Under the pieces are notes generated by a model. The model saw only the letters and a list, made by a program, of their open reading frames with translations. It was not told where the DNA came from and did not search any database. Both the position numbers and the translations under genes were made by a program. A DNA stretch of 64,000 bases from Nakamurella deserti (lineage in GTDB: Bacteria > Actinomycetota > Actinomycetes > Mycobacteriales > Nakamurellaceae), in the NCBI RefSeq assembly GCF_003260015.1, contig NZ_QCXS01000002.1, positions 248,001 to 312,000 of the forward strand. Direction: 5' to 3'. Shown here piece by piece: positions 27,674-54,816 of the stretch (within the stretch, counting starts at the first letter, position 1; every line of letters begins with the position of its first letter).

Positions 27674-27745
27674 GGGCGATTAGCTCAGGGGGAGAGCGCT
27701 TCGTTCACACCGAAGAGGTCACTGGTTCGATCCCAGTATCGCCCA
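27674..27745 (+). tRNA. tRNA-Val (anticodon CAC)
   Basis: Acceptor GGGCGAT/ATCGCCC, anticodon stem-loop CTTCG-TTCACAC-CGAAG, T-loop TTCGATC. CCA is not fully encoded (CCG follows). It shares most of its D- and T-arms with the oppositely oriented tRNA-Val(GAC). Confidence 0.95.
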
Positions 27746-27756
27746 CCGTATTACCG

Positions 27757-32849: not shown

Positions 32850-32970
32850 TGATCTCCCACGCAGCGCTCGACGGTCTGCGGTCCGAGCGTAGCCGGGCGG
32901 CCGGAATCTTCGGGGTCGGCGACCACGCACGTTCAGGGCCCACACGCCTGCGTGGGTGTCCTCCGGACGC

Positions 32971-38720: not shown

Positions 38721-39093
38721 CTGGGTCTTTCTGTCGGACGGACGCACGCCTGACGGTCGCGCCACGACTTGACTGTCTGTGGCTCATCGATCACGTCAGG
38801 TAGGCAGATTTTCATATCGGTCCCGATCGAGGCACCACCGAACGGGTGAAGGTCTGACTGTGGGCGACGACTCGCTCACAGACGGCTGACGGTGTCGGCG
38901 GTTCCGCCCACTGATCGAGGACCGCCTGTGCGCCGAGGTGGTGGGCGTGACGAGCGTCGCGCCGGCGCCGATCGCGGCTCACTCCTCAAGTCCCGACCGG
39001 TGCTGCCGATGGGGAGGGGACAACCGCGTCCAGGTGCCACGCCGGTCCCGACCCGGGGCCGGCGCACAGGTACCACCTCGCGGAGGGAGACGG
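38721..39093. promoter_or_regulatory. Divergent promoter region, adhesin and pil operon
   Basis: About 370 bp separate the two start codons, with an AT-richer patch around 38,795-38,825 (AGATTTTCATATCGG). The pilB side has a strong GGAGGGAGA ribosome-binding site at 39,082. No unambiguous promoter hexamers were assigned. Confidence 0.4.
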
Positions 39094-40764
39094 ATGTACG
39101 AATCGTTCCAACCGCTGCTCGACGCCCTCGCCGACCGCGGTGCCGACCTCAACGACCTGGAGGACGCCGCCCTCGAGACGCGGCGTTCCGGCCGGTCCAT
39201 CCGTGACGTCCTCGTCAACGACTCGGTCATCACCGAGTTCAAGCTCGCCGAGGGCCTCGGCGACGCCCACGGCATGGGCAGCGTCGACCTCGTCGGCTAC
39301 CCCGTGGACCCCGCCGCGATCGCCAAGATCCCGCTCCCGATGGTCATGCGGCACCGGGCGCTGGGCATCTCGATCGACAACGGCGAACTCGTCGTCGCCA
39401 TCAGCGATCCCGACGACGTCGTCGCCCTCGACGACATCCGCGCCGCCACCCGGATGACCGTCCGCCCGGTCGTCGCCGCCCGCAGTGAGCTGCGCAAGCT
39501 GATCGACCGGGTCAAGCGGCAGGACAGCAACCTCGGCGCGATCATCCCCACCGTCCGCGCCGAGGACGAGGACAGCGTCGCCAACCTCACCGCGGTCGGC
39601 GACGACGGCCCGGTGGTCCGCTACGTGAACTCGCTGCTCGAGCAGGCCATCCAGAACCGCGCCTCCGACCTGCATCTCGAGCCGACCGCGACCGACATGC
39701 GGGTCCGGTTCCGCATCGACGGCGTGCTGCACGAGATCGACAAGGTCCCCGGCGGCGTCCAGTCGGCACTGATCTCGCGGCTGAAGATCATGTCGGGCGT
39801 CGACATCACCGAGCGGCGGCTGCCGCAGAACGGCCGCATCACCGTCCAGCTCAACGGCCGCAAGGTCGACCTGCGCACCGCGACGCTGCCCACGGTGTGG
39901 GGCGAGAAGGTCGTCCTGCGGGTCCTGGACACCAGCGGCATCGACCTGGACCTGAAGAAGCTCGGCTTCACCGACGCCAACTACGCCCGGTTCTCCGGCT
40001 CGTTCCGCAAGCCCCACGGCATGGTGCTGGTCACCGGGCCCACCGGCTCGGGCAAGTCGACGACGCTCTACGCGACGCTGTCGGAGATCAGCAAGCCCGG
40101 GGTCAACATCATCACCGTCGAGGACCCCGTCGAGTACCGCCTCGACGGCATCAACCAGGTCCAGGTCAACCACAAGGCCGGCCTGAACTTCGCGGCCATC
40201 CTGCCGGCCATCCTGCGGTCGGACCCCGACATCATCATGATCGGCGAGATCCGCGACCGGGCCACCGCGCAGCTCGGCGTCGAGGCCGCCCTCACCGGTC
40301 ACCTCGTGCTGTCGACCCTGCACACCAACGACGCGCCCAGTGCCGTCACCCGTCTCGTCGAGATGGGCATCGAGCCCTTTCTCGTCGGGTCCGCGCTGGA
40401 CTGCGTCCTCGCCCAGCGGCTCGCCCGCCGGCTCTGCGACTGGTGCAAGGAGGAGTACACCGCCACCGCGGCGGACCGCTCGCCCACCCGCTGGCCCAGC
40501 ACGACCGTGTCGCCGCCGGACACCCTGTGGCGCCCGGTCGGCTGCCGCAACTGCAGCCAGACCGGCTTCCGCGGCCGGATGGCCGTCAACGAGGTGATGC
40601 CCGTCGGTGAGGAGATCGAGCACCTGGCGCTGGCCCGCGCCTCGGCCGGCGAGATCCGCAAGGTCGCCCTCGCCGACGGCATGGTCACCCTGCGCGACGA
40701 CGGCCTGCGCAAGGTCGCCGCCGGCGACACCACGCTCGACGAGGTCATCCGGGTCACCGTCTGA
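39094..40764 (+). CDS. pilB: Type IV pilus assembly ATPase PilB
   Basis: A 556-residue GspE/PilB extension ATPase that powers pilin polymerisation at the inner face of the membrane. It has an N-terminal GspE-N/MshEN-like domain (about 1-150), Walker A TGPTGSGKSTTLYA (about 312-325), the Asp box TVEDPVEY, Walker B IMIGEIRDRATA, the His box STLHTNDAPSA and a tetracysteine zinc site (CDWC...CRNC). ATG 39094 follows a strong GGAGGGAGA; the longer frame to 38938 is in the promoter region. First gene of a single-strand operon that runs to 52,891. Confidence 0.94.
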   Translation: MYESFQPLLDALADRGADLNDLEDAALETRRSGRSIRDVLVNDSVITEFKLAEGLGDAHGMGSVDLVGYPVDPAAIAKIPLPMVMRHRALGISIDNGELVVAISDPDDVVALDDIRAATRMTVRPVVAARSELRKLIDRVKRQDSNLGAIIPTVRAEDEDSVANLTAVGDDGPVVRYVNSLLEQAIQNRASDLHLEPTATDMRVRFRIDGVLHEIDKVPGGVQSALISRLKIMSGVDITERRLPQNGRITVQLNGRKVDLRTATLPTVWGEKVVLRVLDTSGIDLDLKKLGFTDANYARFSGSFRKPHGMVLVTGPTGSGKSTTLYATLSEISKPGVNIITVEDPVEYRLDGINQVQVNHKAGLNFAAILPAILRSDPDIIMIGEIRDRATAQLGVEAALTGHLVLSTLHTNDAPSAVTRLVEMGIEPFLVGSALDCVLAQRLARRLCDWCKEEYTATAADRSPTRWPSTTVSPPDTLWRPVGCRNCSQTGFRGRMAVNEVMPVGEEIEHLALARASAGEIRKVALADGMVTLRDDGLRKVAAGDTTLDEVIRVTV

Positions 40765-40823
40765 CCCCGTCGGCACGACCGAGGAACTCCCATCAACCAC
40801 CTCCCCACCCCGGACGGACGGCA

Positions 40824-41933
40824 ATGCACCCGACAACCCTGGCGGATCTCGTGCCGCCGCCGCCCACGGCCCCGCTGCGGCTGGACGACCTGCTCGCCGC
40901 GACGGTGCGGATGGGCGGCTCCGACCTGCACCTGACCGCCGGCATCCCGCCGTGCGTCCGGCTGCACGGATCGCTCGCGCCGCTCCCCGGGCTCGCCCCG
41001 CTGGAGGCCGCGGACACCCAGCGGCTCGTGCGGAGCGCCCTGACCGACGACCAGTGGCAGCTCTACGCCCGTGAACACGAGCTCGACACCGCCCACGCCC
41101 TCCCGGGGGTCAGCCGGTTCCGGCTCAACGTCTACCGCCAGCGGGGCTCCGTCGGTGCGGTGTTCCGGGTGATCGCGCACGCCATCCCCAGGCTCGAGGA
41201 CCTCGGTCTGCCGCTGGCCATCGAGAGTTTCGCGCACCTGCCGCGCGGTCTGGTGCTCGTCACCGGCCCGACCGGCTCCGGCAAGTCCACGACGATGGCG
41301 TCGCTGCTGGACGTGGCCAACCGGACCCGCTCGGCGCACATCATGACCATCGAGGATCCCATCGAGTACGTCCACACCCATCAGAGGTCGGTGGTCAACC
41401 AGCGCGAGGTCGGTGTCGACACCGCCGATTTCGCGGTGGCGCTCAAGCACGTGCTGCGGCAGGACCCGGACATCATCCTGGTGGGGGAGCTGCGCGACCT
41501 GGAGACCACCTCGGTCGCCGTCACCGCCGCCGAGACCGGCCACCTGGTGCTCGCGACCCTGCACACGCAGTCCGCGGCGCAGACCATCGACCGGCTCATC
41601 GACATCTACCCGGCGCACCAGCAGCCGCAGATCCGGGCGCAGCTGTCGAACTGCCTGCAGGGGGTGCTGACCCAGGCACTGGCGCCGCGGCGCGACGGGC
41701 GCGGCCGCGTCGCCATCACCGAGGTGATGATCGCCAACCCCGCGGTGCGCAACCTCATCCGCGAGGGCAAGGCCCACCAGATCCCGACCGTCATCCAGTC
41801 GTCGGGAGGGCTGGGGATGGTGACGTTCGACCAGAGCCTGGCCCAGGCGTTCCAGGACCAGTCGATCAGCATGCAGACCGCACTCGAGCTGGCGCACGAC
41901 CCGGCCGAGTTCCGACGACTCGCGAGGGTGTGA
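40824..41933 (+). CDS. pilT: Type IV pilus retraction ATPase PilT
   Basis: A 369-residue PilT, the hexameric ATPase that depolymerises pili and drives twitching. Features are ASDLHLT-like GSDLHLTAGIPP, Walker A TGPTGSGKSTTMAS (about 149-162), Asp box TIEDPIEYVH, Walker B ILVGELRDLET, His box LATLHTQSAAQT, and a C-terminal helix where PilT has AIRNLIRE-like AVRNLIREGKAHQ. It lacks the GspE N-domain and zinc site of PilB, as expected. It follows pilB by 59 bp and precedes pilC by four bases. Presence of PilT indicates retractile pili. Confidence 0.94.
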   Translation: MHPTTLADLVPPPPTAPLRLDDLLAATVRMGGSDLHLTAGIPPCVRLHGSLAPLPGLAPLEAADTQRLVRSALTDDQWQLYAREHELDTAHALPGVSRFRLNVYRQRGSVGAVFRVIAHAIPRLEDLGLPLAIESFAHLPRGLVLVTGPTGSGKSTTMASLLDVANRTRSAHIMTIEDPIEYVHTHQRSVVNQREVGVDTADFAVALKHVLRQDPDIILVGELRDLETTSVAVTAAETGHLVLATLHTQSAAQTIDRLIDIYPAHQQPQIRAQLSNCLQGVLTQALAPRRDGRGRVAITEVMIANPAVRNLIREGKAHQIPTVIQSSGGLGMVTFDQSLAQAFQDQSISMQTALELAHDPAEFRRLARV

Positions 41934-41937
41934 CGAC

Positions 41938-43170
41938 ATGCCGGGTGTGAAGACGTTCAGCTACGAGGCCGTCGACGCGACGGGCGCCGTCCGCAAGGGC
42001 AGCATCGACTCCGAGTCGGCCGACGCGGCCGCCGTCGCGCTCAGCGGCCAGCGGCTGATCCCGCTCCGCGTCGCCGCCGCCGGTCAGGGCCTGAACCGGG
42101 AACTGTCGATCCCCGGCCTCGGCAAGCGCCGCACCAGCCTGAAGGACCTGGCGGTGCTGTCGCGGCAGTTCGCCTCGATGACGTCGTCCGGGCTGACGCT
42201 GACCCGCTCGCTGGGCATCCTCGAGGAGCAGACGGTCAAGCCCGGCCTCAAGGCCGCGGTCGGGCAGTTGCTCGCCGACGTTCAGGCCGGGTCGACGCTG
42301 TCGGCGGCGATGGCCCGCCACCCCGAGCACTTCCCGCTGCTGATGGTCAACATGGTGGGCGCCGGCGAGACCGGCGGCTTCCTCGACGGGGCGCTGGACC
42401 GCATCGCGAAGATGTTCGAGTCCGACGCGGCGCTGCGCGCCAAGATCAAGTCGGCGATGACCTACCCGGTGATCGTGCTGCTGTTCTCGCTGCTGATGGG
42501 CGTCGGCGTCGTCATCTTCATCGTGCCGATCTTCGAGACGATGTTCGCCCAGCTCGGTGGCGAGCTGCCGCTGCCCACCCAGACGCTGGTGGTGCTGTCG
42601 CACAACGCCTACTGGGCACTGCCTCTCGTCGTGGTGCTGACGGTGGTGGCGCTGCGGCTGTACCGGCGGGGGATGCGCACCAGTGCCGAGTTCCGGCTCC
42701 GGGCCGACACGGTCAAGCTCAAGCTGCCCGTGTTCGGCAACCTGTTCGGCAAGCTCGCGATCTCGCGGTGGGCCCGCAACTTCGGCACCCTGCTGGCGGT
42801 GGGCGTGCCGGTGATCCAGGCCCTCGACATCGTCGGCGGCACCTCCGGCAACGCGCTGATCGGCCGGGCGATGGCCGACGTCCGCGACTCGGTGCGCACC
42901 GGCAGCACGATCTCCGAGCCGATGGCCCGGCACGACGTGTTCCCGTCGATGGTGGTGCAGATGCTCGAGGTGGGGGAGGAGACGGGCCAGACCAGCGACA
43001 TGCTCGCCAAGGTCGCCGACTACTACGACCAGGAGGTCGAGAGCGCCACCGAGGCGCTGACGTCCGCGCTGGAGCCGATCCTCGTCGTGCTGATGGGCGT
43101 GGTGATCGGCGGCATGGTCATCTGCCTCTACCTGCCGATGTTCACGATCTACCAGAACATCGGCGGATAA
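41938..43170 (+). CDS. pilC: Type IV pilus platform protein PilC
   Basis: A 410-residue polytopic membrane protein of the GspF/PilC family, the inner-membrane platform for pilus assembly. Two repeated GspF domains are visible, each with the FxRQFASMTSSGL-type and MARHP/MARHDVFP segments and ending in VGAGETGG or VGEETGQ. Three hydrophobic helices lie at about 180-205, 220-240 and 378-402. ATG 41938 is four bases after the pilT stop. Confidence 0.94.
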   Translation: MPGVKTFSYEAVDATGAVRKGSIDSESADAAAVALSGQRLIPLRVAAAGQGLNRELSIPGLGKRRTSLKDLAVLSRQFASMTSSGLTLTRSLGILEEQTVKPGLKAAVGQLLADVQAGSTLSAAMARHPEHFPLLMVNMVGAGETGGFLDGALDRIAKMFESDAALRAKIKSAMTYPVIVLLFSLLMGVGVVIFIVPIFETMFAQLGGELPLPTQTLVVLSHNAYWALPLVVVLTVVALRLYRRGMRTSAEFRLRADTVKLKLPVFGNLFGKLAISRWARNFGTLLAVGVPVIQALDIVGGTSGNALIGRAMADVRDSVRTGSTISEPMARHDVFPSMVVQMLEVGEETGQTSDMLAKVADYYDQEVESATEALTSALEPILVVLMGVVIGGMVICLYLPMFTIYQNIGG

Positions 43171-43203
43171 TTTTCTGTAACCGCTTATGTGCGGTGCGTA
43201 GCG

Positions 43204-43211
43204 ACCGATAG
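43204..43211 (+). promoter_or_regulatory. Candidate FliA/WhiG-type -10 element upstream of the first pilin
   Basis: ACCGATAG resembles the GCCGATAA -10 of FliA/WhiG sigma factors and lies 70 bp before the pilin ATG. A TTAT sits 15 bp upstream where TAAA would be expected. The match is partial; the reason to note it is the sigma factor gene of this class at 53,716-54,816. Confidence 0.25.
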
Positions 43212-43281
43212 GGAGAGGGACAGCCTGTCCGGACCGGCCGACATGACCGGATCCGCCCCCTCGTCGCCCTTGGAGGCGCAG

Positions 43282-43758
43282 ATGTACAAGACCTTTGCCG
43301 ATCTTCGCGCCAAGCGCGCCAAGGGCGACAACGGCTTCACCCTGATCGAACTGCTCGTCGTGGTGGTCATCCTCGGCGTGCTGATCGCGATCGCGATCCC
43401 GGTCTACCTGAACTACCGCAAGGGCGCCAACGACTCGGCCGCCGAGTCGGATGTCCGCAACGCCATCAGCGTCATGGAGGTCTGCAACGCCGGCACGGGC
43501 AAGTATCCCACTGCTGCGACGACCTACCCGTTGGCCACCGCTTCGACCACCACCCCCTGCTCTGGCCAGACAGTCACGACCAGCACCGGAACGACGCTGA
43601 AGTACATCGCCAACACGGCGGGCACCTGCTACACGATCATCGCCCGCAACACCGGTGGAGCGCCGAAGTACTGGATCTACAACAGTGCCACTGCTGGCTC
43701 CGTGACCGATGCCGGGACCGAGTCGCTGTTCAACACTCCGGTCGCTCCGAGCTGCTGA
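43282..43758 (+). CDS. pilA: Type IV pilin PilA, first copy
   Basis: A 158-residue prepilin. A short basic leader ends in DNG; cleavage before Phe exposes FTLIELLVVVVILGVL, the classic pilin helix with Glu at +5. The body carries four cysteines, giving disulphide loops, and ends in APSC. ATG 43282 has GGAGG six bases upstream. An AT-rich stretch with an ACCGC/GCGGT hairpin separates it from pilC, so it may have its own strong promoter. The N-terminal half is almost identical, also at DNA level, to the second pilin. Confidence 0.93.
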   Translation: MYKTFADLRAKRAKGDNGFTLIELLVVVVILGVLIAIAIPVYLNYRKGANDSAAESDVRNAISVMEVCNAGTGKYPTAATTYPLATASTTTPCSGQTVTTSTGTTLKYIANTAGTCYTIIARNTGGAPKYWIYNSATAGSVTDAGTESLFNTPVAPSC

Positions 43759-43775
43759 CCCTGCTTCCATCAGCT

Positions 43776-43808
43776 CAGGTGGGGCGCCGATAACCGGCGC
43801 CCCACCTG
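43776..43808 (+). terminator. Hairpin between the two pilin genes
   Basis: CAGGTGGGGCGCCG pairs perfectly with CGGCGCCCCACCTG across ATAAC. It lacks a T-run; it may attenuate transcription so that the first pilin is made in excess, or protect the pilin mRNA 3' end. GCCGATAA lies across the stem-loop junction. Confidence 0.7.
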
Positions 43809-43835
43809 GTGCGGTCCGTCCCCGGAGGTCCTCCC

Positions 43836-44312
43836 GTGCATCACCGCCTCACCACGCTGCGGGGCCGAAAGGCCGCTGGCGACAAGGGCTTCACGCTGAT
43901 CGAGCTGCTCGTCGTGGTGGTCATCCTCGGCGTGCTCATCACGATCGCGATCCCGGTCTACCTGAACTACCGCAAGGGCGCCAACGACGCGGCTGCCGAG
44001 TCGGACGTACGTAACGCCATCAGCATTCTCGAGGTGTGCAACGCCTCCGACGGCAAGTACCCGGTCGCGGATTTCCCTGCATCATTCGGTTCAGAAACCG
44101 GTGCAACGGTCGTGGACGCCTGTTCCGGCCAGCGCTACAACACCAGCAAGGGCACCCAGCTCACGTACCGGACCAACAGCTCGGGTTCGTGCTACAGCAT
44201 GGTGGCAAAGAATGCCGGTGGCGCCCCGAAGTACTGGCAGTACGTCAGCTCCGCCGGGGGAAGTGTCGCCCCCTCCGATGCGGCCCGGTTCGCCGCGCCG
44301 CCCCCCTGCTGA
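43836..44312 (+). CDS. pilA2: Type IV pilin PilA, second copy
   Basis: A 158-residue prepilin, the same length as the first. The leader ends in GDKG, then FTLIELLVVVVILGVLI. The next 45 residues match the first pilin nearly exactly (YLNYRKGAND, AESDVRNAIS), after which the sequences diverge while keeping cysteine spacing and GGAPKYW. GTG 43836 is preferred because GGAGGT precedes it; an upstream GTG at 43809 has none. A tandem duplication with a diversified C-terminal head suggests two pilus types or a major/minor pair. Confidence 0.92.
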   Translation: MHHRLTTLRGRKAAGDKGFTLIELLVVVVILGVLITIAIPVYLNYRKGANDAAAESDVRNAISILEVCNASDGKYPVADFPASFGSETGATVVDACSGQRYNTSKGTQLTYRTNSSGSCYSMVAKNAGGAPKYWQYVSSAGGSVAPSDAARFAAPPPC

Positions 44313-44372: not shown

Positions 44373-45164
44373 GTGACGCCACTGCTCGTCGTGGCCGCGC
44401 TGTTCGGTCTGGCCGTCGGCTCGTTCCTCAACGTGGTCATCCACCGGGTACCGGCGGCGATGTCGTTGTCCCGGCCCGGTTCCCACTGTCCCGCCTGCGA
44501 CCACCCGATCCGGACCCGGCACAACGTGCCGGTGGTCGGCTGGCTGGTGCTGCGCGGCCGGTGCGCCGACTGCCGGGCCCCGATCAGCGTGCGCTACCCG
44601 CTGGTGGAGCTCGCCACCGCCGTGCTGTTCGTCGGGATCGCTTGGCGGCTGGCGGATCTGGACCTGCTGCCGGCGCTGCCGGCGCTGCTGTGGTTCACCG
44701 CCATGGGCGTGAGTCTGACCATGATCGACCTCGACGTGCGGCGGCTGCCGGACGCGATCGTCTTCCCGTCGTACGGGGTGATCGCCGCACTGCTCGTCAC
44801 CGCCGCTTGGATCGGTCACGACCCGGCCGCGCTGCTGCGGGCCGCCGTCGGCGCCGTCGCGCTCTTCGCCGGCTACTTCCTGCTGGCGTTCTTCTACCCG
44901 GGCGGGATGGGCTTCGGCGACGTCAAGCTGGCCGGGATCGTCGGTGGCGTCCTGGGTTTCCTCGGTTACCCGGTCCTGCTCGTCGGCGCCTTCGCCGCGT
45001 TCTTCATCGGCGCGTTCGTCGGGATCGCCAAGGTGCTGGTCAGCCGCGGCACCGCCGGGCGGTCGCTGGCGTTCGGGCCGTTCATGATCGCCGGTGCCCT
45101 GCTGTCCGTCTTCGTCGGCCCGACCGTGGCCGATGTCTACTCACGTCTCGCGTTGGGCGGTTGA
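44373..45164 (+). CDS. pilD: Prepilin peptidase PilD
   Basis: A 263-residue bifunctional leader peptidase/N-methyltransferase. The cytoplasmic zinc loop has two CxxC pairs (CPACDH and CADCRA), and the aspartic protease residues lie in MIDLDVRRLPD and GFGDVK. About seven hydrophobic helices are visible. GTG 44373 follows GGAGA. It should process the two pilins and the three large prepilin-like proteins downstream. Confidence 0.94.
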   Translation: MTPLLVVAALFGLAVGSFLNVVIHRVPAAMSLSRPGSHCPACDHPIRTRHNVPVVGWLVLRGRCADCRAPISVRYPLVELATAVLFVGIAWRLADLDLLPALPALLWFTAMGVSLTMIDLDVRRLPDAIVFPSYGVIAALLVTAAWIGHDPAALLRAAVGAVALFAGYFLLAFFYPGGMGFGDVKLAGIVGGVLGFLGYPVLLVGAFAAFFIGAFVGIAKVLVSRGTAGRSLAFGPFMIAGALLSVFVGPTVADVYSRLALGG

Positions 45165-45202: not shown

Positions 45203-46327
45203 ATGAAGCTCAGCCGGCGCTCGGCCCGCTCCCAGGCGGTGAACACCGACGGCCACGTCATCGGGCTCGACATCGGGGCCACCGCCGTCCGGGCCGCGGT
45301 GCTCGCGCTCAACGGCAAGGGCGGTGGCCGGCCGGTCGTCACCGTGCACGGCCTCGGCTCCGCGCCGCTGCCGCCCGGTGCCGTGGTCAACGGTGTGGTG
45401 ATGGAGCCGGCCGCGGTGACCGCCGCGATCCAGACCCTCTGGCAGACGCACAAGTTCAAGTGCCGCCGGGTCATCCTGGGCACCTCGAGCCCACAGGCGG
45501 TCGTGCGGCCGCTGCAGATCCCCAACCTCAACGCCCAGCAGCGGGCCAAGGCGCTGCCCTTCCAGGCGCGCGAGATCATCGCGCTGCCGCTGGACGAGGT
45601 GGTGCTGGACTATGCCCAGATCGGCGACGTCGACGCCACCACCGGCATGGTCTCCGGGCTGCTCATCGCCACCCCGCGCCGGCCGGTGCTGGCCGCCGTC
45701 GAGGCCGTGCAGAAGGCCGGCCTGAAGGTCGTCCGGGTCGACCTGTCGTCCTTCGGCGCACTGCGGTCCGTCGCCACCGACGCCCTCGCCGTGCAGGCGG
45801 TCGTCGACATCGGCGCCCACCTCACCTCGATCGTCATCCACCACGACGGCGTCCCGAGGCTGGTGCGCACCGTCGCCCGTGGCGGCCAGGAGCTCACCGA
45901 CCTGCTGGTCGAGAACCACGGCCTGCCCGCCGACGAGGCCGAGCGGCTCAAGCGTGAGACCGGGATGAGCGGCGAACACCAGGCCGCGGCCGAGGTGATC
46001 AGGGCCGGCGTCCGGCCCCTGCTCGCCGAGATCCGCAGCTCGGTCAACTACTTCCGCTCCGCCAACGACGGGATCGCGCTGCAGGGCGTGGTTCTCACCG
46101 GCGGCGGCGCGCAGCTGGCCGGCCTCGCCGACGCGGTCGCCCGCCAGGTCGGGGTGGCCACCACCATCGGCTCGGCGATGTCGGCCGTCAGCACCGGCCC
46201 GGTACAGCCCGTCGGCGCGGCGGCCGGCCGGCCGCCGGTCATCGAGAAGCCCGGCCGTGCCACCGGCCACGACATCTCCGGCGCGACCGCGGTGTCCGTC
46301 GGACTGGCTCTGGGAGCGGCCGCATGA
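45203..46327 (+). CDS. pilM: Type IV pilus assembly protein PilM
   Basis: A 374-residue actin-like ATPase. It shows the phosphate-1 loop IGLDIGATAVRAAVL (about 19-33), AVVDIGAHLTSIVIHHDG (phosphate 2) and VVLTGGGAQLAGL (adenosine). PilM forms the cytoplasmic ring that binds the PilN N-terminus. ATG 45203 overlaps the stop of a 12-codon reading frame (45,168-45,205, MTTNTPASAVRR) in an ATGA arrangement. That leader frame may couple pilM to pilD, or be chance. Confidence 0.9.
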   Translation: MKLSRRSARSQAVNTDGHVIGLDIGATAVRAAVLALNGKGGGRPVVTVHGLGSAPLPPGAVVNGVVMEPAAVTAAIQTLWQTHKFKCRRVILGTSSPQAVVRPLQIPNLNAQQRAKALPFQAREIIALPLDEVVLDYAQIGDVDATTGMVSGLLIATPRRPVLAAVEAVQKAGLKVVRVDLSSFGALRSVATDALAVQAVVDIGAHLTSIVIHHDGVPRLVRTVARGGQELTDLLVENHGLPADEAERLKRETGMSGEHQAAAEVIRAGVRPLLAEIRSSVNYFRSANDGIALQGVVLTGGGAQLAGLADAVARQVGVATTIGSAMSAVSTGPVQPVGAAAGRPPVIEKPGRATGHDISGATAVSVGLALGAAA

Positions 46328-47031
46328 GCGAGACCCCGACCACCCCGCCCGGCGCCGGGGCCACCGGCCGCGCCCCGCTCTGGACCGCGGCGCCCGGCTG
46401 GGGGATCGCGGCCGACCTGACCCCGCCGGAGATCCTGAAGAGCCGCCAGATCAGCGTGCTGCGGCGGGTGATGGCGGCCGGCCTCGTCGGCCTCGTCCTG
46501 GCCTGCGGCGGCGGCTGGTACCTCGCCGCCCGCGACAACGACGACGCCGTGGCCGATCTCGCCTTCGCCTCCGACCAGACCGTCCGGTTGCAGGCCGCCG
46601 CGCGCGACTACGCCGACGTCGTGTCCATCCAGAACCGGGTGCTGCAGATCGACGAGCAGATCGCCGACGTGATGGCCGGTGACGTGGATCTCGTGGAGCT
46701 GATGGACCTGCTGCAGACCAATCTGCCGCCGACCATGACCATCACCCAGCAGTCGATCACCGTGAGCACCTCGGGGGTCGCCGGTGCGAGCGCCGGCGGG
46801 GTCGATCCCGCCGGCGGAGCGCGCATCGGCACCATCACCATGAGCGGCACCGGTACGACCCTGGACGACCTGTCCGACTACGTCGACCGGCTGCAGACGG
46901 TGCCGGGCATCGTCGACGTGGTGCCGCTGGCCAACAGCGTGACCGCCGACGGCGGCGCCGGTACCCAGTTCAGCTTGACCGTGGGGTTGACCGACGCCCT
47001 GCTCAGCAACCGATTCGCCGTGGGTGGGTGA
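46324..47031 (+). CDS. pilN: Type IV pilus assembly protein PilN
   Basis: A 235-residue bitopic membrane protein. It has a cytoplasmic N-terminus with LTPPEILKSRQ, one membrane helix (about 46-68), a coiled-coil region and a C-terminal ferredoxin-like PilN fold. The LPPTMTITQQSI strand is typical. It overlaps pilM by ATGA and should anchor PilM to the membrane and pair with PilO. In this monoderm there is no PilQ/PilP, consistent with their absence from the operon. Confidence 0.86.
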   Translation: MSETPTTPPGAGATGRAPLWTAAPGWGIAADLTPPEILKSRQISVLRRVMAAGLVGLVLACGGGWYLAARDNDDAVADLAFASDQTVRLQAAARDYADVVSIQNRVLQIDEQIADVMAGDVDLVELMDLLQTNLPPTMTITQQSITVSTSGVAGASAGGVDPAGGARIGTITMSGTGTTLDDLSDYVDRLQTVPGIVDVVPLANSVTADGGAGTQFSLTVGLTDALLSNRFAVGG

Positions 47032-47035
47032 CCTG

Positions 47036-47737
47036 ATGACGACACGTACGGGTTCGTACAACCAACGGCGGGTCTGGCTCGGCGGCGGGCTGGTCCTGGG
47101 CCTCGTCATCGCTCTGGTGGGCTGGTTGCTGGTCATCGAGCCGGAGCTGACCGACACCGCGGCGAAGCGCGACCAGCTGGAGTCCGTGGAGCTGCAGAAC
47201 ACCGTCCTGGCGGCCAAGAACGCCAAGCTCAAGGCGGAGAACGACGACGCCGCCGCGCTGCGGGACAGCCTGTCGACCGCGCTGGCCGAGCTGCCCGCCG
47301 ACGGCGGCCTGCCCGCCTTCACCCGGCAGCTCTCGTCGCAGGCGACGGCGCACGGGGTCACCCTGACCAGCGTCATCGTCGGCGCCACCGCCACCGCCGC
47401 CGTCGCCGACCCCGCCGCGGCGGCGACGCCCGCGACCATCGACGACACGGCGACCGCCGCGACCACCGGCACGACCGCCGCGACGGGCCCGCTGCAGATC
47501 ACCGTCACGGTGGCGGCCTCCGGCCTCGGCCGCGATCTGGCGGCCTTCCTCTACGACATCCAGGTCACCGGCCCGCGCCGCGCCCTGGTCACCGCCACCC
47601 AGCTGGCGCCCACCGAGGGCAGCAGCTCCATCGGGCCCGACGCCGGCAGCACCCTGGACCTCACCCTCTCGGTGTTCTCGGCGCCGATGACCGCCGACGA
47701 GCAGGCCGCCCTGCAGAAGCTGCTCAGCGGTTCCTAG
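47036..47737 (+). CDS. pilO: Type IV pilus assembly protein PilO
   Basis: A 233-residue bitopic protein with one N-terminal helix (VWLGGGLVLGLVIALVGWLLV), a coiled coil (KRDQLESVELQNTVLAAKNAKLKAE) interrupted for display here, and a C-terminal PilO-like domain with FTRQLSSQATAHGV. An Ala/Thr-rich insertion lies at about 120-150. ATG 47036 is preferred; a GTG at 47024 would overlap the pilN end. It forms the PilN-PilO heterodimer of the alignment complex. Confidence 0.86.
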   Translation: MTTRTGSYNQRRVWLGGGLVLGLVIALVGWLLVIEPELTDTAAKRDQLESVELQNTVLAAKNAKLKAENDDAAALRDSLSTALAELPADGGLPAFTRQLSSQATAHGVTLTSVIVGATATAAVADPAAAATPATIDDTATAATTGTTAATGPLQITVTVAASGLGRDLAAFLYDIQVTGPRRALVTATQLAPTEGSSSIGPDAGSTLDLTLSVFSAPMTADEQAALQKLLSGS

Positions 47738-47745
47738 GCCCGCCC

Positions 47746-50718
47746 ATGACACCGTCTCCGCCGTCCCGGTTCCGGGGCGCGCTCGCCGCCACCGACCTGC
47801 GCCTCGCCGCACTCCTGCAGCGACGCGCCGCGCTCCAGGGACGGCGCGGCACCGGCGCCGACGGCGCTGACGGCGGTTTCTCGCTGCTCGAGACCGTGGT
47901 CGCGATCAGTCTCATCGTGGTGGTGATGGCCGCGTTCGGCGTCTTCTTCGTCAACTCGGTGGCCTTCACCAGCCTGCAGCGGGCCACCCAGGCGGCCACC
48001 GCCATCGCCAACAGCCAGCTGGAGATCATCCGGGCGCTGCCCGCGTCCGACCTGATCAAGGGCCGCACCTCCGCCGCCGTCGGTGCCCAGGTGACTGCCG
48101 CGCCGGTCCCGGTCAGGACGTCCCTGGCCGGGATGACCGTGGGCAACGGGGCCGCGGTGGATCCGGCCACGGCCACAGCCACGCCGACGCTACCCACCAC
48201 GCCGGTCACGCAGACCCTGAACGGGATCACCTACAGCACCACCACCTACCTCGGCCACTGCGGTCTGCCCGCCGGGGTCACTCGCGACGCCGGGTGCACC
48301 CCGTCCACGGTGCCGACCGGCTACATCCGTGCCGTCGTGGCCGTCACCTGGTCGCAGAACAAGTGCCCGGCGGCCGGGTGCTCCTACGTCACCTCCACCC
48401 TGCTGAGCACCGGCGACGACCCGTTGTTCAACCTCAACCAGACGCCGCCCGCCGCGCCGGCGCTGACCAACCCGGGGCCGCAGACCTCCGCCGTCGGCGA
48501 CGACGTGAACCTGGTGGTCGCGTCGTCGGCGGTACCCACCTACCGGATCAACCTGACCTCCGGCGTGCTGCCCGCCGGCCTCGCGCTGGACACCGCCACC
48601 GGCGTGATCACCGGCCGCCCGGTGACCGTCGCGCCCGCGACCACGCTGACCCTGACGCTGGTCGACGGCTTCGGCCGCACCGCCACCCAGACCTTCACCT
48701 GGACCATCGTCGCGCCGCTGTCCGTGGAGACGCCGCCCGGTCAGTCCGGAGTCATCGGCACCCCGGTGACGTCGCTCACCGTGCGCGCCGCCGGCGGCAC
48801 CGCCCCCTACACCTGGAGCGACCCGAACGGCACCCTGCCGCCGGGCCTGTCCCTGGCGACCAGCTCCGACACCGGCGTCGTCAGCGGCACTCCCACCACC
48901 TACGGCACCTACCCCGTGGTCCTGCAGGTGACCGATGCGGCCGGCCGCACCAGCTCGGCCACCTTCAGCTGGACGATCGACTACCCGCCGTTCGCCGCCA
49001 CCAACCCGGGGCCGCAGTCCGCCACCGCCGGTACCGCCGACACCCTCCAGCTGACCGTCACGGGCGGCTCCGGCTCGTTCGCCTGGACCGGTGGCACCAC
49101 CCTGCCCGCCGGACTGACCCTGACCCCGGCCGGGCTCATCTCCGGCACCCCGACCATCGTCGGCACCACCTCGGTGGCGCTGACCGCCACCGACACCGTC
49201 ACCAAGGTGGCGCGGCCGGTCGCCTTCAGCTGGACGGTGTACGGCAAGCCGTCGGTGACCGCACCCGGTCCGCAGCAGTCGACCGTGGGCTCCGCGGTGT
49301 CGGTCCAGGTGGGGGCGAACTGCCCGAACTCGCCGTGCACCTTCCGCCTCGACAACGCACCGGCCGCGCTCGGGATCAGCAGCACCGGTCTGATCACCGG
49401 CACCGTCACCAGCAACCCGCAGGTGTTCGGTGCGGTCACCTTCACGATGACCGACAGTGCCGGCGCGTCGGTGACCAGCAGCGCATTCAGTTGGACCGTC
49501 ATCAGCAGCACGCCGACGGCGCCGCAAGCGGTCTCGGTGACAGAGGCGGACGGCGCCCTGACCGTGTCGTGGACGCCGCCGACCAGCGGCGCCACTCCGA
49601 CGTCCTACACGGTCACGCTGAACCCCGGCGGCGCTACCTGCACGACCTCCGGAACCAATTGCAGCATCGCCGGTCTCACCAACGGCGTGGTGTACTCAGC
49701 CACTGTGGCGGCGACCAACAGCGGTGGCACGAGCGCGCCGAGCACCGGCGCGCAGGGCATCCCGTATCCCGCGGTGCTGTCGGCGGCCAGCGGGCTGACC
49801 CTGTGGCTCGACGGCACCGACCCCGGGGTGTTTCTCACCGCCGCCAACTGCACCGGACCCGCGGCGCCGGCGTCGACGAAGATCGGCTGCTGGAAGGACA
49901 AGAGCGGGGCGAATCGCAGCTTCTCGCAGGCCGTGACCGGGAATCAGCCCGTCGTCGGAACCTGGAACGGCCTGCAGGCCGCCTCGTTCACCGACACCAG
50001 CGACGTCCTCAACGCGGTGAACGCCGGCAGCTACCAGACGGTGTTCACGGCAGCGAACATCCTCAATTCCGGCACCGCTGCACGGTGGGTGAACGTGTTC
50101 GGGCAGGTCAACACCGATTACAACGTGCGCCTGGGCACCTATGGCGAGCGCAGTGCGCCCAACGCCAACGACTGGGCGACTGGCACCGGCACGCCCCCGC
50201 TCAACTGGATCAACAGTGTTCAGGGGGTCAACGGCAGCCCGCCGGGACCGATGATCACCACGGACCAGGCGTCGGCGGTCCGGACCTTCACGGCGAGCGT
50301 CTCCAACACCGTCTTCACCGACCGCGCCCTGGTCGGCCAGGTCGGTGACATCATCACCTTCAACCGGGTGCTGACCGCCGCCGAGCGCCGCTCGGTGGAG
50401 GAGTACCTCGGCCGCAAGTGGGGCGTGGTCATCGCGCCGACGGCGCCGACGGTCACGTCGGCGACCGTCACGGGAAACGGCAGCGTGGCGGTGTCCTGGA
50501 CCGCGCCGGCGTCCAACGGCGGCGCTGCTGTCACCGGATACCGCGTCACCGCCTCTCCGGGCACGGCTCCCAACATCCCCACCTGCTCCACAACCGGAGC
50601 CACCACCTGCACCGTGTCCGGTCTGTCGAGGAACACCAACTACACGTTCACCGTCGCGGCGATCAACGCGGCAGGCGCCGGTCCGTCGTCCGCGCCCTCG
50701 GCGGTGGTGCGCCCATGA
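47746..50718 (+). CDS. Giant PilV-like minor prepilin carrying Ig-like, FN3 and LamG-like modules
   Basis: A 990-residue prepilin-like protein. A 43-residue leader ends in DGG, then FSLLETVVAISLIVVVMAAF forms a type IV pilin helix. After a short pilin-like body (to about 235) come four He_PIG/putative-Ig modules (each with NPGPQ or similar, LPAGL, ISGTP), a fibronectin type III domain (PTAPQAVSVTEADG), a LamG/concanavalin-like domain beginning LWLDGTDPGVF and ending LTAAERRSVEEYLGRKWG, and a final FN3. Such a protein can sit only at a pilus tip. It likely presents an adhesive head outside the wall. It overlaps the next gene by ATGA. Confidence 0.85.
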   Translation: MTPSPPSRFRGALAATDLRLAALLQRRAALQGRRGTGADGADGGFSLLETVVAISLIVVVMAAFGVFFVNSVAFTSLQRATQAATAIANSQLEIIRALPASDLIKGRTSAAVGAQVTAAPVPVRTSLAGMTVGNGAAVDPATATATPTLPTTPVTQTLNGITYSTTTYLGHCGLPAGVTRDAGCTPSTVPTGYIRAVVAVTWSQNKCPAAGCSYVTSTLLSTGDDPLFNLNQTPPAAPALTNPGPQTSAVGDDVNLVVASSAVPTYRINLTSGVLPAGLALDTATGVITGRPVTVAPATTLTLTLVDGFGRTATQTFTWTIVAPLSVETPPGQSGVIGTPVTSLTVRAAGGTAPYTWSDPNGTLPPGLSLATSSDTGVVSGTPTTYGTYPVVLQVTDAAGRTSSATFSWTIDYPPFAATNPGPQSATAGTADTLQLTVTGGSGSFAWTGGTTLPAGLTLTPAGLISGTPTIVGTTSVALTATDTVTKVARPVAFSWTVYGKPSVTAPGPQQSTVGSAVSVQVGANCPNSPCTFRLDNAPAALGISSTGLITGTVTSNPQVFGAVTFTMTDSAGASVTSSAFSWTVISSTPTAPQAVSVTEADGALTVSWTPPTSGATPTSYTVTLNPGGATCTTSGTNCSIAGLTNGVVYSATVAATNSGGTSAPSTGAQGIPYPAVLSAASGLTLWLDGTDPGVFLTAANCTGPAAPASTKIGCWKDKSGANRSFSQAVTGNQPVVGTWNGLQAASFTDTSDVLNAVNAGSYQTVFTAANILNSGTAARWVNVFGQVNTDYNVRLGTYGERSAPNANDWATGTGTPPLNWINSVQGVNGSPPGPMITTDQASAVRTFTASVSNTVFTDRALVGQVGDIITFNRVLTAAERRSVEEYLGRKWGVVIAPTAPTVTSATVTGNGSVAVSWTAPASNGGAAVTGYRVTASPGTAPNIPTCSTTGATTCTVSGLSRNTNYTFTVAAINAAGAGPSSAPSAVVRP

Positions 50719-51383
50719 CCCGCCATCCGCATTCTGCACCGTCGGCATGGCGTCGCCGCTGCCGCGCGCTGCGCGACGAGGCCCGCCGCGACGACGGCAC
50801 CACCCTGCTCGAACTGACCGTCGGCATGGCCCTGATGGCCGTCTTCATGGTCATCTTCACCGGAGCGATCATGATGATGTTCAACGCGATGAAGACCTCG
50901 CAGACCGTGAACAACGCGGCCGCGCAGGTCAACACGGCCTTCCTTCAGCTCGACGAGTCGGTGCGCTCCGCCTCCTACATCGGCACCCCGGGACAGGCCA
51001 ACGGCAGTTGGTACGTCGAGTACAAGTCGCTGGACAGCACGGGGCAGGACCAGTGCACCCAGCTGCGGGTCACCACCGCCGACCAGCAGCTGCAGAGCCG
51101 TACCTGGAGGGTGGTCAACGCGACGCCGACCGCGCCGAGCGCGTGGCGGCCGATCGCCTCGGGCGTGTCCAACGGAGCCGGCGCCGCCGGCACGCGGGAC
51201 CAGCCGTTCGTCCTCGGCGCGGGGGCGGGGTCCACCCAGTTCCAGCAGCTCGTCGTGACGCTGGTGCCGACGGCGGGGCCGGGCGCGACCACGGCAACCC
51301 GCGGCACCCAGTTCACCGTGACCGCGCTCAACAGCGTGCTCCCGGCGCCCGCGACCAACCCGTGCGCGCAGGTGCGGCCGTGA
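50715..51383 (+). CDS. PilW-like minor prepilin
   Basis: A 222-residue protein with a basic leader ending in DDG, followed by TTLLELTVGMALMAVFMVIF, a prepilin helix with Glu at +5 (Thr instead of Phe at +1). The body has a CTQLRVTT strand and few cysteines. It is coupled by ATGA to the giant minor pilin and by GTGA to the next gene, so the three are probably made in fixed ratio as a tip-priming complex, like PilV-PilW-PilX. Confidence 0.85.
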   Translation: MTRHPHSAPSAWRRRCRALRDEARRDDGTTLLELTVGMALMAVFMVIFTGAIMMMFNAMKTSQTVNNAAAQVNTAFLQLDESVRSASYIGTPGQANGSWYVEYKSLDSTGQDQCTQLRVTTADQQLQSRTWRVVNATPTAPSAWRPIASGVSNGAGAAGTRDQPFVLGAGAGSTQFQQLVVTLVPTAGPGATTATRGTQFTVTALNSVLPAPATNPCAQVRP

Positions 51384-52891
51384 GGTCCGTCCGGCGGGAC
51401 CGCGCCCTCGCCACCGACGACCAGGGGTCGATGGCGATCCTGCTGCTCGTGGTGCTACTCGGGTTGATGCTCGGCGCCGTGCTGGTGCCGATGGTCGTCA
51501 CCACCAGCCGGGCGTCGGCGTTCGACAAGACCAGGGTGCAGGCGCTGGACGCCGCCCAGGCCGGTATCGACGTCACCCTCGGCGGCATCCGGGCCGGGGT
51601 CACCGCCGGCGTCGGTGACAGCACCCGGTTGCCGTGCGGCCCCGGCTCGGGCAGCGTGAACACGGCGTCGATCGCCCGCTACGACGTCGTGGTCGAGTAC
51701 TTCGTCACCGACCCCAGGTCCGAGCCGTACCCGTCGACGCGGGCCATGCGCTGCATCCCCGGTTACGGGACGTACGACAGCGCCACCGGCAGGACGACCC
51801 CCGCGTTCGCGCGGATCACCTCCGTGGGCAGTGTGGGCACGCCGGCCAACGGCTCCAGCCCCAGCCGGACCCTCACCACCACCTACGTCTTCCGGACCAG
51901 CAACGTCAACATCCTCGGCGGCCTGCTGATGCTCGAAGGCACACCCAGCCTGTGCGCCGACGCCGGCGGGGCAGCGCCGACCGAGGGCAGCATCCCGGTG
52001 CTGCGGGCCTGTACGTCGGCGAGCCCGGCGGCCCCCCAGCAGGTGTTCGCCTACCGCAGCGACCTGACGCTGCAACTGGTCTCGTCGATCACCAACGCCT
52101 ATCCGAACGGGCTGTGCCTCACGCCGGCCCGGACACCGGCGGTCGCCGGCGACGCGGTCAAGCTGCTGCAGTGCGGTCCGCTGGGCAGCCCCGCGAGTTA
52201 CACCCAGCAGTGGAGCTACAACGACAGCGCCAACTACCAGGCGGCCCAGGCCGACTCGGCCACCACCGGCAACCTGCCCAACCTGTGCCTCAACGCGGTG
52301 AGCCAGGCCGCCGGTCAGAGCCTGGTCGTCGGGGGCTGCGGAAACGTCTGGCGGCCGACGGCGGCCGTCGGCCCGGGCGCAGCGGCGCTGCCCCAGTGGA
52401 TCAACTTCGCCGAATTCGGGCGCTGCCTCGACGTCACCTACCAGGACGTCAACTACGCGTTCCTGATCAGCTACCCGTGCAAGCAGAACCCGTTCCCGGC
52501 GGCGAAGCTGTGGAACCAGCTGTTCACCGCTCCGTCGCTGGCCGGAGTGGTGAGCGCGACCGGGCAGATCTACACCACGCCGGTGGCCAACGGCACGAAG
52601 TACTGCCTGACCAGCCCCGGCACCGCCGGCGGGTACGCCACCGTGCGGCCCTGCATCACCGGCAGCGCGCAGCAGACCTGGACGCTGTACGGCGGGGACG
52701 CCTCGCTGAGCTACTCGACGAAGTACACCATCGTCAACGGCTCGACCTGCCTGGGGCTCGGTCCGGTCAACGCCGCGGCGTCGTTCTCCTCGACCATCGT
52801 GGTGAAGAGCTGCACCGGCGCGACCGACCAGAAATGGAACGCGGTGGCGAACACGCTCAACCCGGCGCAGCGCGACACCTTCGAGAGGTGA
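51380..52891 (+). CDS. PilX-like pilus tip protein with ricin-type lectin region
   Basis: A 503-residue protein. One N-terminal membrane helix (MAILLLVVLLGLMLGAVLVP) lacks the canonical G/F-TLxE site but has the PilX-like AAQAGID. From about 185 onward the sequence is a ricin B/beta-trefoil-like repeat: Cys-rich units with CLTPA, QQWSY, RCLDVT, CLTSPG, QQTWTLY, CLGLG and QKWNAV, the QxW pattern of sugar-binding trefoils. Start GTG 51380 overlaps the previous stop. Last gene of the pil operon. A lectin head on the pilus complex would bind host, plant or self polysaccharide. Confidence 0.8.
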   Translation: MRSVRRDRALATDDQGSMAILLLVVLLGLMLGAVLVPMVVTTSRASAFDKTRVQALDAAQAGIDVTLGGIRAGVTAGVGDSTRLPCGPGSGSVNTASIARYDVVVEYFVTDPRSEPYPSTRAMRCIPGYGTYDSATGRTTPAFARITSVGSVGTPANGSSPSRTLTTTYVFRTSNVNILGGLLMLEGTPSLCADAGGAAPTEGSIPVLRACTSASPAAPQQVFAYRSDLTLQLVSSITNAYPNGLCLTPARTPAVAGDAVKLLQCGPLGSPASYTQQWSYNDSANYQAAQADSATTGNLPNLCLNAVSQAAGQSLVVGGCGNVWRPTAAVGPGAAALPQWINFAEFGRCLDVTYQDVNYAFLISYPCKQNPFPAAKLWNQLFTAPSLAGVVSATGQIYTTPVANGTKYCLTSPGTAGGYATVRPCITGSAQQTWTLYGGDASLSYSTKYTIVNGSTCLGLGPVNAAASFSSTIVVKSCTGATDQKWNAVANTLNPAQRDTFER

Positions 52892-53029: not shown

Positions 53030-53680
53030 GGGTCAAGACCTGGGGCCGGAACTCGGGGTCGGGACTCAGCGTCGCAACTAGGGGTCGGAACTCGGGGTCG
53101 GGACTCAGCGTCGCAACTCGGGGTCGGGACTCGGGGTTGGAGCCCAGCTCCGATCTCGGGCGTCGGCACCTGGAGTTTGAACCCGAGTGTCGGAGCTCGG
53201 GTGTCGGGTGTCGAGACCCGGAGAACCCGGGTGTGGGAAGTCGGGCGTCGTGAACCCGGAGTGCGGACTCGGGAGTCGGGACTCGGGGGTCGGAGCCCAG
53301 CTCCGATCTCGGGCGTCGGCACCTGGAGTTTGAACCCGAGTGTCGGAGCTCGGGTGTCGGGTGTCGAGACCCGGACGAATCGGGGTGTGGGAAGTCGGGT
53401 GTCGTGAAACCCGGAGTGCGGACTCGGGAGTCGGGACTCGGGGGTCGGAGCCCAGCTCCGATCTCGGGCGTCGGCACCTGGAGTCCGAACTCGGGTGTCG
53501 GAGCTCGGGTGTCGGGTGTCGAGACCCGGAGAACCCGGGTGTGGGAAGTCGGGCGTCGTGAACCCGGAGTGCGGACTCGGGAGTCGGAACTCGGGGGTCC
53601 ACACACGGACGTCGGCACCCGGAGCTCGGACCCGGGGGTCGGAACTCGGGGCGGTCGGAACTCCGTGCGGAAGCGATCCC
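53030..53680. repeat. Imperfect long tandem repeats built from GTCGGAACTCGGGG-like modules
   Basis: Three long units begin at 53,140, 53,293 and 53,458 (spacings 153 and 165 bp). Each has GAGCCCAGCTCCGATCTCGG, a CTCGGGTGTCGGGTGTCGAG stretch and GAACCCGGAGTGCGGACTCG. Simpler copies of the short module flank them. Open frames on both strands encode only Pro/Ser/Thr/Arg-rich repeats. It occupies the convergent gap between the pil operon and the sigma factor; no gene is supported in 52,892-53,715. Confidence 0.88.
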
Positions 53681-53715: not shown

Positions 53716-54816
53716 TCAGGCGATGCGCGAACCCACCGTCTCGACCGTGCCGATGCTGCCGACTGCGCCCCTGGCGCCCACGGTGCCCCTGGTGCCCGTC
53801 ACGGCCATCGCGGCCGCTTCGGCCCCGACCCGGCGGCGGATCTCCCCCTGGCAGGTCGACATGGCCAGTCGGCCGGCGACGGTGTGCCGACCGCCCACCG
53901 CCTGGTAGTAGGCCCTGCGGGTGGCGGCGGCGCGCCCCGTGCGGGCCAGTGGCGCCAGCGCTTCCGGGTCGAGCTGCGCGTTGATGCCGTCGCGCATCAA
54001 CGCCGTGGCCTCGGCGCACATCTGCGACACCCGGGACTGGGTGACCGACAGCTCGGCGGCGATCTCACCCATCGGGCGGTTCTCGAAGTAGTAGGCCTCG
54101 ACGACCCGGCGCAGCCGATCGGGGAGCGCGGCGACCGCGTCGTGTAGGTAGCCGAGCTGCTCACGATGCAGCAGCAGCGCCTCGGGACCGTGGGTGCGGT
54201 CGGGCAGCACGTCGTGGACGACCTCCGGAGCGAAGCCCTGCAGGCTGACGACGGTGCCGCGCGCGGCGTCGGCCTGCACCGCGTCGAGTTCCCGCAGGCT
54301 CATGCCCAGGGCCGCGGCCACCTCGGTGTCGCTCGGGCAGCGGCTCAGGGAGACGGTGAGATCGCGACGGGCGGCCTCGACCGCACGCACCCGGGCGCGC
54401 ACCGAGCGGGAGGCCCAGTCCATTCCGCGCAGCTCGTCGATGAGGGCGCCGCGGATGCGGAACGCCGCGAAGCTGCGGAAGGACACGGCGCGGTCGGCGT
54501 CGAAGGCGATCGCACTCAGCACCAGCGCCATCATCCCGGCGGACATCAGATCGTCGCGGTCGACGTGGCGGGGGACCGTCCGCATCCGTTCCGAGACCAG
54601 GATCTCCACCAGCGACACGTTGTCCTCGACCAGTTCGGCGACGGCGGCGCGGTCGGTGGCGTGACACAACGTGATGACCGCGACGGCGAGCGGGTGTTCG
54701 CCCCCCGTGGGCTCGACGTCCACGGTCGCCTCTGACTCTGCGTAGCCGCCCTGCGCTTCGAGCGAGCGAGGATCGACATCGTCGGCTTCACTCGAATGAA
54801 TGATGTGGAGGGTCAT
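53716..54816 (-). CDS. FliA/WhiG-family RNA polymerase sigma factor
   Basis: A 366-residue group 3 sigma factor. Region 2 has RDDLMSAGMMALVLSAIAFD and the FliA/WhiG hallmark FRIRGALIDELRGMDW; region 3 follows, and region 4 contains the HTH GEIAAELSVTQSRVSQM. ATG 54816 has GGGAG close upstream. The last 90 residues (after DPEALAPLAR) are an unusual extension ending in Gly/Thr/Val-rich low complexity. No flagellar gene is in the window; its position facing the pil operon makes pilus or surface genes likely targets. Confidence 0.88.
   Translation of the reverse strand: MTLHIIHSSEADDVDPRSLEAQGGYAESEATVDVEPTGGEHPLAVAVITLCHATDRAAVAELVEDNVSLVEILVSERMRTVPRHVDRDDLMSAGMMALVLSAIAFDADRAVSFRSFAAFRIRGALIDELRGMDWASRSVRARVRAVEAARRDLTVSLSRCPSDTEVAAALGMSLRELDAVQADAARGTVVSLQGFAPEVVHDVLPDRTHGPEALLLHREQLGYLHDAVAALPDRLRRVVEAYYFENRPMGEIAAELSVTQSRVSQMCAEATALMRDGINAQLDPEALAPLARTGRAAATRRAYYQAVGGRHTVAGRLAMSTCQGEIRRRVGAEAAAMAVTGTRGTVGARGAVGSIGTVETVGSRIA

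What the first reader, a model, noticed from the sequence alone, without database searches (positions are those of the whole stretch)
47746..52891. Pilus tip complex with giant Ig/LamG minor pilin and a ricin-like lectin
Three coupled genes end the pil operon: a 990-residue minor pilin with four putative-Ig, two FN3 and one LamG-like module, a PilW-like pilin, and a PilX-like protein with a QxW trefoil region. A monoderm pilus with a carbohydrate-binding tip would be a new type of adhesin, perhaps for plant, fungal or self glycans made by the nearby GT2.
Basis: partly seen in the sequence, partly recalled or inferred. Interest (0 to 1): 0.65.

Follow-up and report, generated by a model that had tools for sequence, protein, structure and literature searches.

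The report
Lectin-tipped pilus of soil actinobacteria
Three linked genes probably build the tip of a retractable hair-like pilus on a soil actinobacterium; one ends in a sugar-binding (ricin-type) domain whose single intact binding pocket is kept across much of the actinobacteria, so the pilus probably grips a sugar polymer, a design akin to one proven in Streptococcus sanguinis but built from a different lectin on a different tip subunit.

Summary
The three genes are real, at the stated coordinates, and translationally coupled. They follow pilB-pilT-pilC-pilins-pilD-pilM-N-O in a Nakamurella-type actinobacterium. By gene order and signal peptides they read as an I-J-K minor-pilin set: a 990-aa I-type pilin (4 He_PIG, 2 FN3, 1 divergent LamG-like module), a plain J-type pilin, and a K-type pilin without Glu5 that carries two tandem ricin-type beta-trefoils. 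The trefoil pair is confirmed by Pfam, by an AlphaFold model (pLDDT 85.6) and by Foldseek matches to ricin B and CBM13. The new result is comparative. In 34 aligned actinobacterial K proteins only one of the six trefoil repeats (R4) keeps the sugar-site triad Asp/aromatic/Asn, in 33 of 34; the other five keep it in none. The K lectin and J are constant parts. The I-subunit cargo is not: it is absent in 9 cassettes and variable in 34. Related pil loci carry K subunits without the lectin. A lectin-bearing, modular minor-pilin tip in a monoderm is already known (S. sanguinis PilABC), so this is a new variant, not a new type of adhesin. Sugar binding, tip location and ligand are inferred. Synteny does not support a link to the nearby GT2.

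The parts
38938..43170 (+). pilB (MshEN + T2SSE, 38938-40764), pilT (40824-41933), pilC platform protein (41938-43170)
   Evidence: Pfam; homologues 55-80% identical in the same neighbourhood in relatives
43189..44312 (+). two GspG/PilA-like major-type pilins (43189-43758, 43809-44312)
   Evidence: N_methyl Pfam and TIGR02532/gspG hits
44373..45164 (+). prepilin peptidase PilD
   Evidence: A24_N_bact 1.2e-35 and Peptidase_A24
45242..47737 (+). pilM (about 45242-46327), pilN-like (46324-47031), pilO-like (47024-47737)
   Evidence: PilM_2 1.2e-40, PilN 2e-4, PilO 0.007 (the last two below curated cut-offs)
47746..50718 (+). I-type minor pilin, 990 aa; leader cleaved at G44|FSLLE (Glu5 present)
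   Evidence: I-family HMM hits in about 40 loci
48457..49503 (+). four He_PIG (putative Ig) modules of the I subunit
   Evidence: Pfam; boundaries
49516..49767 (+). first FN3 module (approximate bounds)
   Evidence: Pfam, boundaries
49771..50427 (+). LamG-like (ConA-like jelly-roll, tentative) module
   Evidence: no direct Pfam hit; phrog_10356 6.6e-9; Laminin_G_3 in 3 of 7 relatives, best 7.9e-5; same module in G006 at 56% identity
50443..50706 (+). second FN3 module (approximate bounds)
   Evidence: Pfam, boundaries
50715..51383 (+). J-type minor pilin, 222 aa, G|TTLLE, no extra module
   Evidence: J-family HMM in nearly all cassettes
51380..52891 (+). K-type minor pilin, 503 aa, G16|SMAIL, no Glu5; lectin-bearing
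51428..51934 (+). pilin moiety of K (helix 17-71 and beta-sheet to about 185)
   Evidence: AlphaFold2 model
51947..52405 (+). beta-trefoil 1 (QxW repeats R1-R3; pockets degenerate)
52415..52840 (+). beta-trefoil 2 (QxW repeats R4-R6)
52424..52525 (+). repeat R4, C349-F382: predicted sugar pocket D351 / Y365 / N379
   Evidence: triad in 33 of 34 K proteins, 0 of 34 in each of the other five repeats

Best explanation
The three genes encode the tip-initiating minor-pilin complex (I-J-K) of a retractable type IVa pilus. The I and J prepilins (with Glu5) and the K prepilin (without Glu5) are cleaved by PilD, assemble first, and end up at the filament tip with K outermost. K presents two tandem beta-trefoils; the first repeat of the second trefoil (R4) holds one working galactose/xylose-type pocket (Asp351, stacking Tyr365, Asn379), so the pilus tip binds a terminal or internal sugar of an extracellular polysaccharide. 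The long I subunit adds an Ig/FN3 stalk with a LamG-like module, a lineage-specific second binding or spacer element. PilT-driven retraction would turn sugar binding into attachment or surface movement. Shown by tools: genes, order, signal peptides, domains, trefoil fold, conservation of one pocket, constancy of K and J, variability of I. Inferred: tip location, sugar binding, ligand, role in adhesion.
For: Operon context pilB/T/C/A/D/M/N/O then I-J-K. Coupled start/stop overlaps. Class III signal peptides, Glu5 in I and J and not in K; a Glu5-less subunit caps tip complexes in known systems (PMC10191384). Cassette conserved across the class: Nakamurella, Actinoplanes, Nocardioides-type, Kineosporia, Cellulomonas, Leifsonia, Demequina, Jonesia. 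Trefoils: Pfam 2.3e-16, AlphaFold pLDDT 85.6, Foldseek ricin B 6.2e-10 and CBM13 1knl TMt 0.82, rmsd 2.6. Pocket triad kept in R4 only, 33/34 against 0/34 in each other repeat, matching the ricin 1-alpha residues Asp22/Trp37/Asn46, with Tyr as a known stacking substitute (PMC8705660). Not created by the search patterns: 11 relatives in the first K alignment came from PilM neighbourhoods, not from lectin similarity, and 16 of the 34 K proteins in A3 lack the R4 search pattern.
Against: No experiment. K does not hit PilX_N or GspK profiles, so 'K' rests on missing Glu5, order and size. Five of six pockets are degenerate, so affinity may be low. Adhesion of the studied relative, Actinoplanes zoospore pili, is described for hydrophobic surfaces, not sugars (PMC8325347). 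The LamG call is weak.
Confidence: 0.62

Rival explanations
1. The trefoils are a structural cap or protein-protein interface of the tip and bind no sugar in vivo; the R4 residues are kept for folding.
For: Five of six pockets are degenerate; many trefoils are not lectins; the last strand and E502 are invariant in all 34, suggesting tight packing on the pilin moiety, as with the extra domain of GspK.
Against: Cysteines and QxW aromatics, which serve folding, are kept in most repeats, whereas the polar Asp/Asn and the exposed stacking aromatic are kept together only in R4.
Confidence: 0.2
2. The lectin recognises the cell's own envelope or exopolysaccharide (for example arabinogalactan or a matrix glycan), used for passage through the wall, cell-cell aggregation or twitching along matrix, rather than a host or plant glycan. 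This is a ligand choice within the best explanation, not an alternative to it.
For: The same single pocket is kept across many genera of actinobacteria, which fits a shared ligand better than a host-specific one. Nearby GT2 (CelA-like) and GH26 genes exist.
Against: The GT2/GH26 genes are not kept beside pil in relatives; the ligand is untested.
Confidence: 0.3
3. The system is a secretion (type II-like) pseudopilus or a DNA-uptake pilus rather than an adhesive pilus.
For: I-J-K sets are shared with type II secretion; GspG-like pilins match.
Against: A PilT-like retraction ATPase is present, a monoderm has no outer membrane for a type II secretin to span (general knowledge), and modular adhesin-like cargo sits on I and K.
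Confidence: 0.1
4. The Ig/FN3/LamG part of the I subunit is only a variable spacer with no binding role.
For: It is absent in 9 cassettes and differs in the rest; the same fn3-LamG-fn3 block occurs in a protein without a pilin signal in G017/G044, that is, a shuffled block.
Against: A ConA-like lectin module in pilin PilC of S. sanguinis binds glycans; one relative replaces it by a second ricin lectin (L036).
Confidence: 0.35

Closest known systems
Streptococcus sanguinis PilA-PilB-PilC minor-pilin complex (PMC9934059, PMC8179133)
   Same: Monoderm type IVa pilus without PilY1; tip-located minor-pilin complex; modular pilins with Ig-like and lectin modules; PilC shown to bind sialylated glycans and heparin oligosaccharides.
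   Different: There the lectin is a ConA-like jelly-roll on a Glu5-bearing pilin. Here a double ricin trefoil sits on the Glu5-less subunit, with a separate Ig/LamG array on the I-type subunit; J is unmodified.
GspI-GspJ-GspK / PilHIJK tip complex
   Same: Three coupled minor pilins in the order I-J-K, the last without Glu5 and with an extra domain.
   Different: GspK's extra domain is alpha-helical; here it is two beta-trefoils. No GspK or PilX profile match.
Actinoplanes missouriensis zoospore type IV pili (Kimura 2019, cited in PMC8325347)
   Same: Actinobacterial type IV pili in a genus whose other species carry the same I-J-K cassette with lectin K.
   Different: Reported role is adhesion to hydrophobic surfaces; the paper itself could not be read here and A. 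missouriensis K was not examined.
CBM13 / ricin-B (R-type) lectins
   Same: Fold, QxW repeats, disulfides and the 1-alpha-type pocket in R4.
   Different: Fused to a type IV pilin; tandem trefoils with only one canonical pocket.

Membership tests
Type IVa pilus (PilM-PilN-PilO class) | Extension and retraction ATPases, platform protein, PilMNO, prepilin peptidase, N-methylated pilins in one locus | tested here: met
   (PilN and PilO below curated cut-offs but in the right place)
I-J-K minor-pilin tip complex | Three consecutive minor pilins, only the last lacking Glu5 | tested here: met
I-J-K minor-pilin tip complex | Sequence match of the third protein to GspK/PilX profiles | tested here: not met
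   only a lectin-free relative (L123) shows a weak PilX_N hit
I-J-K minor-pilin tip complex | Complex formation and tip location | not testable with these tools
   no heteromer prediction was available
Modular pilins | Class III signal peptide plus an added domain not specific to pili | tested here: met
Ricin-B / CBM13 lectin fold | beta-trefoil with QxW repeats above the Pfam cut-off, structural match | tested here: met
Ricin-B / CBM13 lectin fold | Conserved sugar-pocket residues in at least one repeat | tested here: met
   R4 only, 33/34
Ricin-B / CBM13 lectin fold | Sugar binding | not testable with these tools
   needs a glycan array
LamG / ConA-like jelly-roll | Profile match to Laminin_G_3 or a related family | tested here: inconclusive
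   no direct hit; relatives hit at 7.9e-5; profile-profile match only 25 columns; no PDB match

The most novel reading that the evidence does not exclude
In many actinobacteria the K-type cap of the type IV pilus is itself a dedicated lectin with one invariant pocket, so the pilus tip recognises one shared glycan class across the group (perhaps an envelope or matrix polysaccharide of the bacteria themselves), while the I subunit carries exchangeable lineage-specific cargo.
Probability: 0.3. Interest if true: 0.65.

Novelty: new variant of a known kind. Interest (0 to 1): 0.46.

Why it matters
Tip complexes of type IV pili decide what the filament grips, and little is known of them in actinobacteria. 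A constant lectin with one conserved pocket on the capping subunit gives three residues and one domain to test, and a named set of culturable genera (Actinoplanes, Cellulomonas, Leifsonia, Kineosporia) in which to do it. The contrast between constant K/J and variable I, and between lectin and lectin-free K, shows modular evolution of pilus tips at two positions at once.

Tried and rejected
Single-sequence structure prediction of K failed (pLDDT 35.6); the 34-sequence alignment solved it. Direct evidence for LamG was sought in Pfam, PDB profiles and profile-profile comparison with genus Laminin_G_3 domains and stayed weak. Plasmid and viral-contig searches showed no mobile-element origin of K. 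A WhiG-type promoter for control by the neighbouring sigma factor was searched for and not found. Functional coupling to the GT2 was tested by synteny and rejected as unsupported. The literature library yielded no report of a ricin-type or trefoil minor pilin; most subscription papers, among them the Actinoplanes pilus study, are not held, so absence is weak evidence.

Full report
What is there. The three ORFs at 47746-52891 are real and overlap by 4 bases at each junction (ATGA at 50715, GTGA at 51380), so they are translationally coupled. They end an operon with pilB (MshEN type), pilT, pilC, two GspG-like pilins, pilD, pilM, pilN-like and pilO-like genes. The genome belongs to a genus whose other members include a Nakamurella MAG: contig G003:C236 has the same 19,539-base length as JAFIHI010000011.

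The three pilins. The first has the leader G|FSLLE with Glu5, four He_PIG and two fn3 domains. The second has G|TTLLE and no added domain. The third has G|SMAIL with no Glu5. Order and Glu5 pattern are those of I-J-K tip complexes; a Glu5-less subunit caps such complexes (PMC10191384). No GspK or PilX profile hits the third protein, so the K name rests on topology.

The lectin. Pfam finds Ricin_B_lectin at 2.3e-16, and a profile of 12 K proteins finds ricin B and CBM13 chains in the PDB. An AlphaFold model on 34 sequences (pLDDT 85.6, pTM 0.65) gives an N-terminal helix 17-71, a pilin sheet to about 185, six trefoil repeats to about 487 and a last strand at 496-502. Foldseek returns ricin B first (6.2e-10) and single CBM13 domains with TMt up to 0.82. 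So there are two tandem trefoils.

Which pocket works. In ricin 1-alpha, galactose stacks on Trp37 and is held by Asp22 and Asn46; Tyr can replace Trp in a related lectin (PMC8705660). I scored the equivalent positions (second residue after the first Cys, second before the next Cys, third before the QxW aromatic) in each repeat over 34 K proteins. R4 has all three in 33 of 34; R1, R2, R3, R5 and R6 have them in none. The five other repeats are an internal control that keeps fold constraints but not the pocket. The result is not an artefact of the search: 16 of the 34 K proteins lack the pattern that includes the R4 CLD motif, and 11 relatives in the first alignment were collected through PilM neighbourhoods, with D351 and N379 invariant there.

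Constant and variable parts. Own-built HMMs for I, J and K, run on all fetched loci, show J at about 200 aa and K at about 500 aa nearly everywhere, while the I subunit from its signal peptide on ranges from about 190 to 1040 aa: by my count from that table 9 cassettes have a bare pilin and 34 carry cargo. Where Pfam was run, cargo includes He_PIG arrays, FN3, TIG, Big_9 and, in L036, He_PIG plus a second ricin lectin. Two Actinoplanes loci carry tandem I-J-K cassettes (L057, L059). In other PilM-bearing genomes of the order the K pilin moiety is followed by other, mostly unclassified sequence instead of the lectin, so the lectin is one of several K types. In an even sample of the class 14 of 395 genomes have a lectin K at E <= 1e-10, so it is widespread but in a minority of species.

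The LamG-like module. No profile hits it directly, but homologues from viral contigs and other actinobacteria include members that hit Laminin_G_3, and a phage virion family matches. In G017 and G044 the same fn3-LamG-fn3 block sits in a protein with no pilin signal. I call it LamG-like with moderate confidence.

How it most likely works. The I-J-K set initiates the pilus and sits at its tip; K presents the lectin; R4 binds a sugar; retraction by PilT pulls the cell. Only the anatomy, fold and conservation are shown; location, binding and ligand are inferred. Keeping one pocket across many genera argues for a shared ligand, possibly self-made glycan, but the particular GT2 near this operon is not conserved with it.

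Compared with the known. S. sanguinis PilABC already provides a monoderm, modular, glycan-binding minor-pilin tip, and He_PIG, FN3 and Laminin_G_3 pilins are common. The difference here is a double R-type lectin on the Glu5-less subunit, kept across many actinobacterial lineages. I found no report of this in the held literature. Hence: new variant of a known kind, moderate interest.

Noticed in passing
53716-54816 (-): FliA/WhiG-family sigma factor (TIGR02479 1.6e-48, below its curated cut-off), tail-to-tail with the pil operon; a 62% identical gene lies beside pil in G006. WhiG-like sigma factors control type IV pili in Actinoplanes and probably Rubrobacter (PMC8325347); no WhiG-type promoter was found here.
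   Followed up: partly
1942-16162 (-): A DISARM-like defence cluster (DrmC, DrmB, DrmA, DrmMI, DrmD) followed by a DpdE-like SNF2 helicase at 15483-18473 (+), in a stretch of lower G+C, with a tRNA group at 26416-27747 about 8-11 kb beyond it.
   Followed up: partly
35193-38765 (-): 1190-aa adhesin with nine Ca_tandemer/Big_13 Ig repeats, divergent from pilB; not kept beside pil in relatives.
   Followed up: partly
29719-32945 (-): CelA-like GT2 next to a GH26-like gene, a possible exopolysaccharide pair.
   Followed up: partly
53042-53663: GC-rich tandem repeat between K and the sigma gene: 153-bp unit in about 3.2 copies at 94%, built on a 14-bp subunit; function unknown.
   Followed up: no
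L119, L120, L121, L125, L126: Giant lectin-free K-like pilins (670 to 1021 aa) with no Pfam match in the two scanned (L119, L126), in related pil loci.
   Followed up: partly
L117 556-2460 (reverse-complement coordinates), L118 397-2466: Proteins without a pilin signal, probably secreted, that carry the same fn3-LamG-fn3 block as the I subunit.
   Followed up: no
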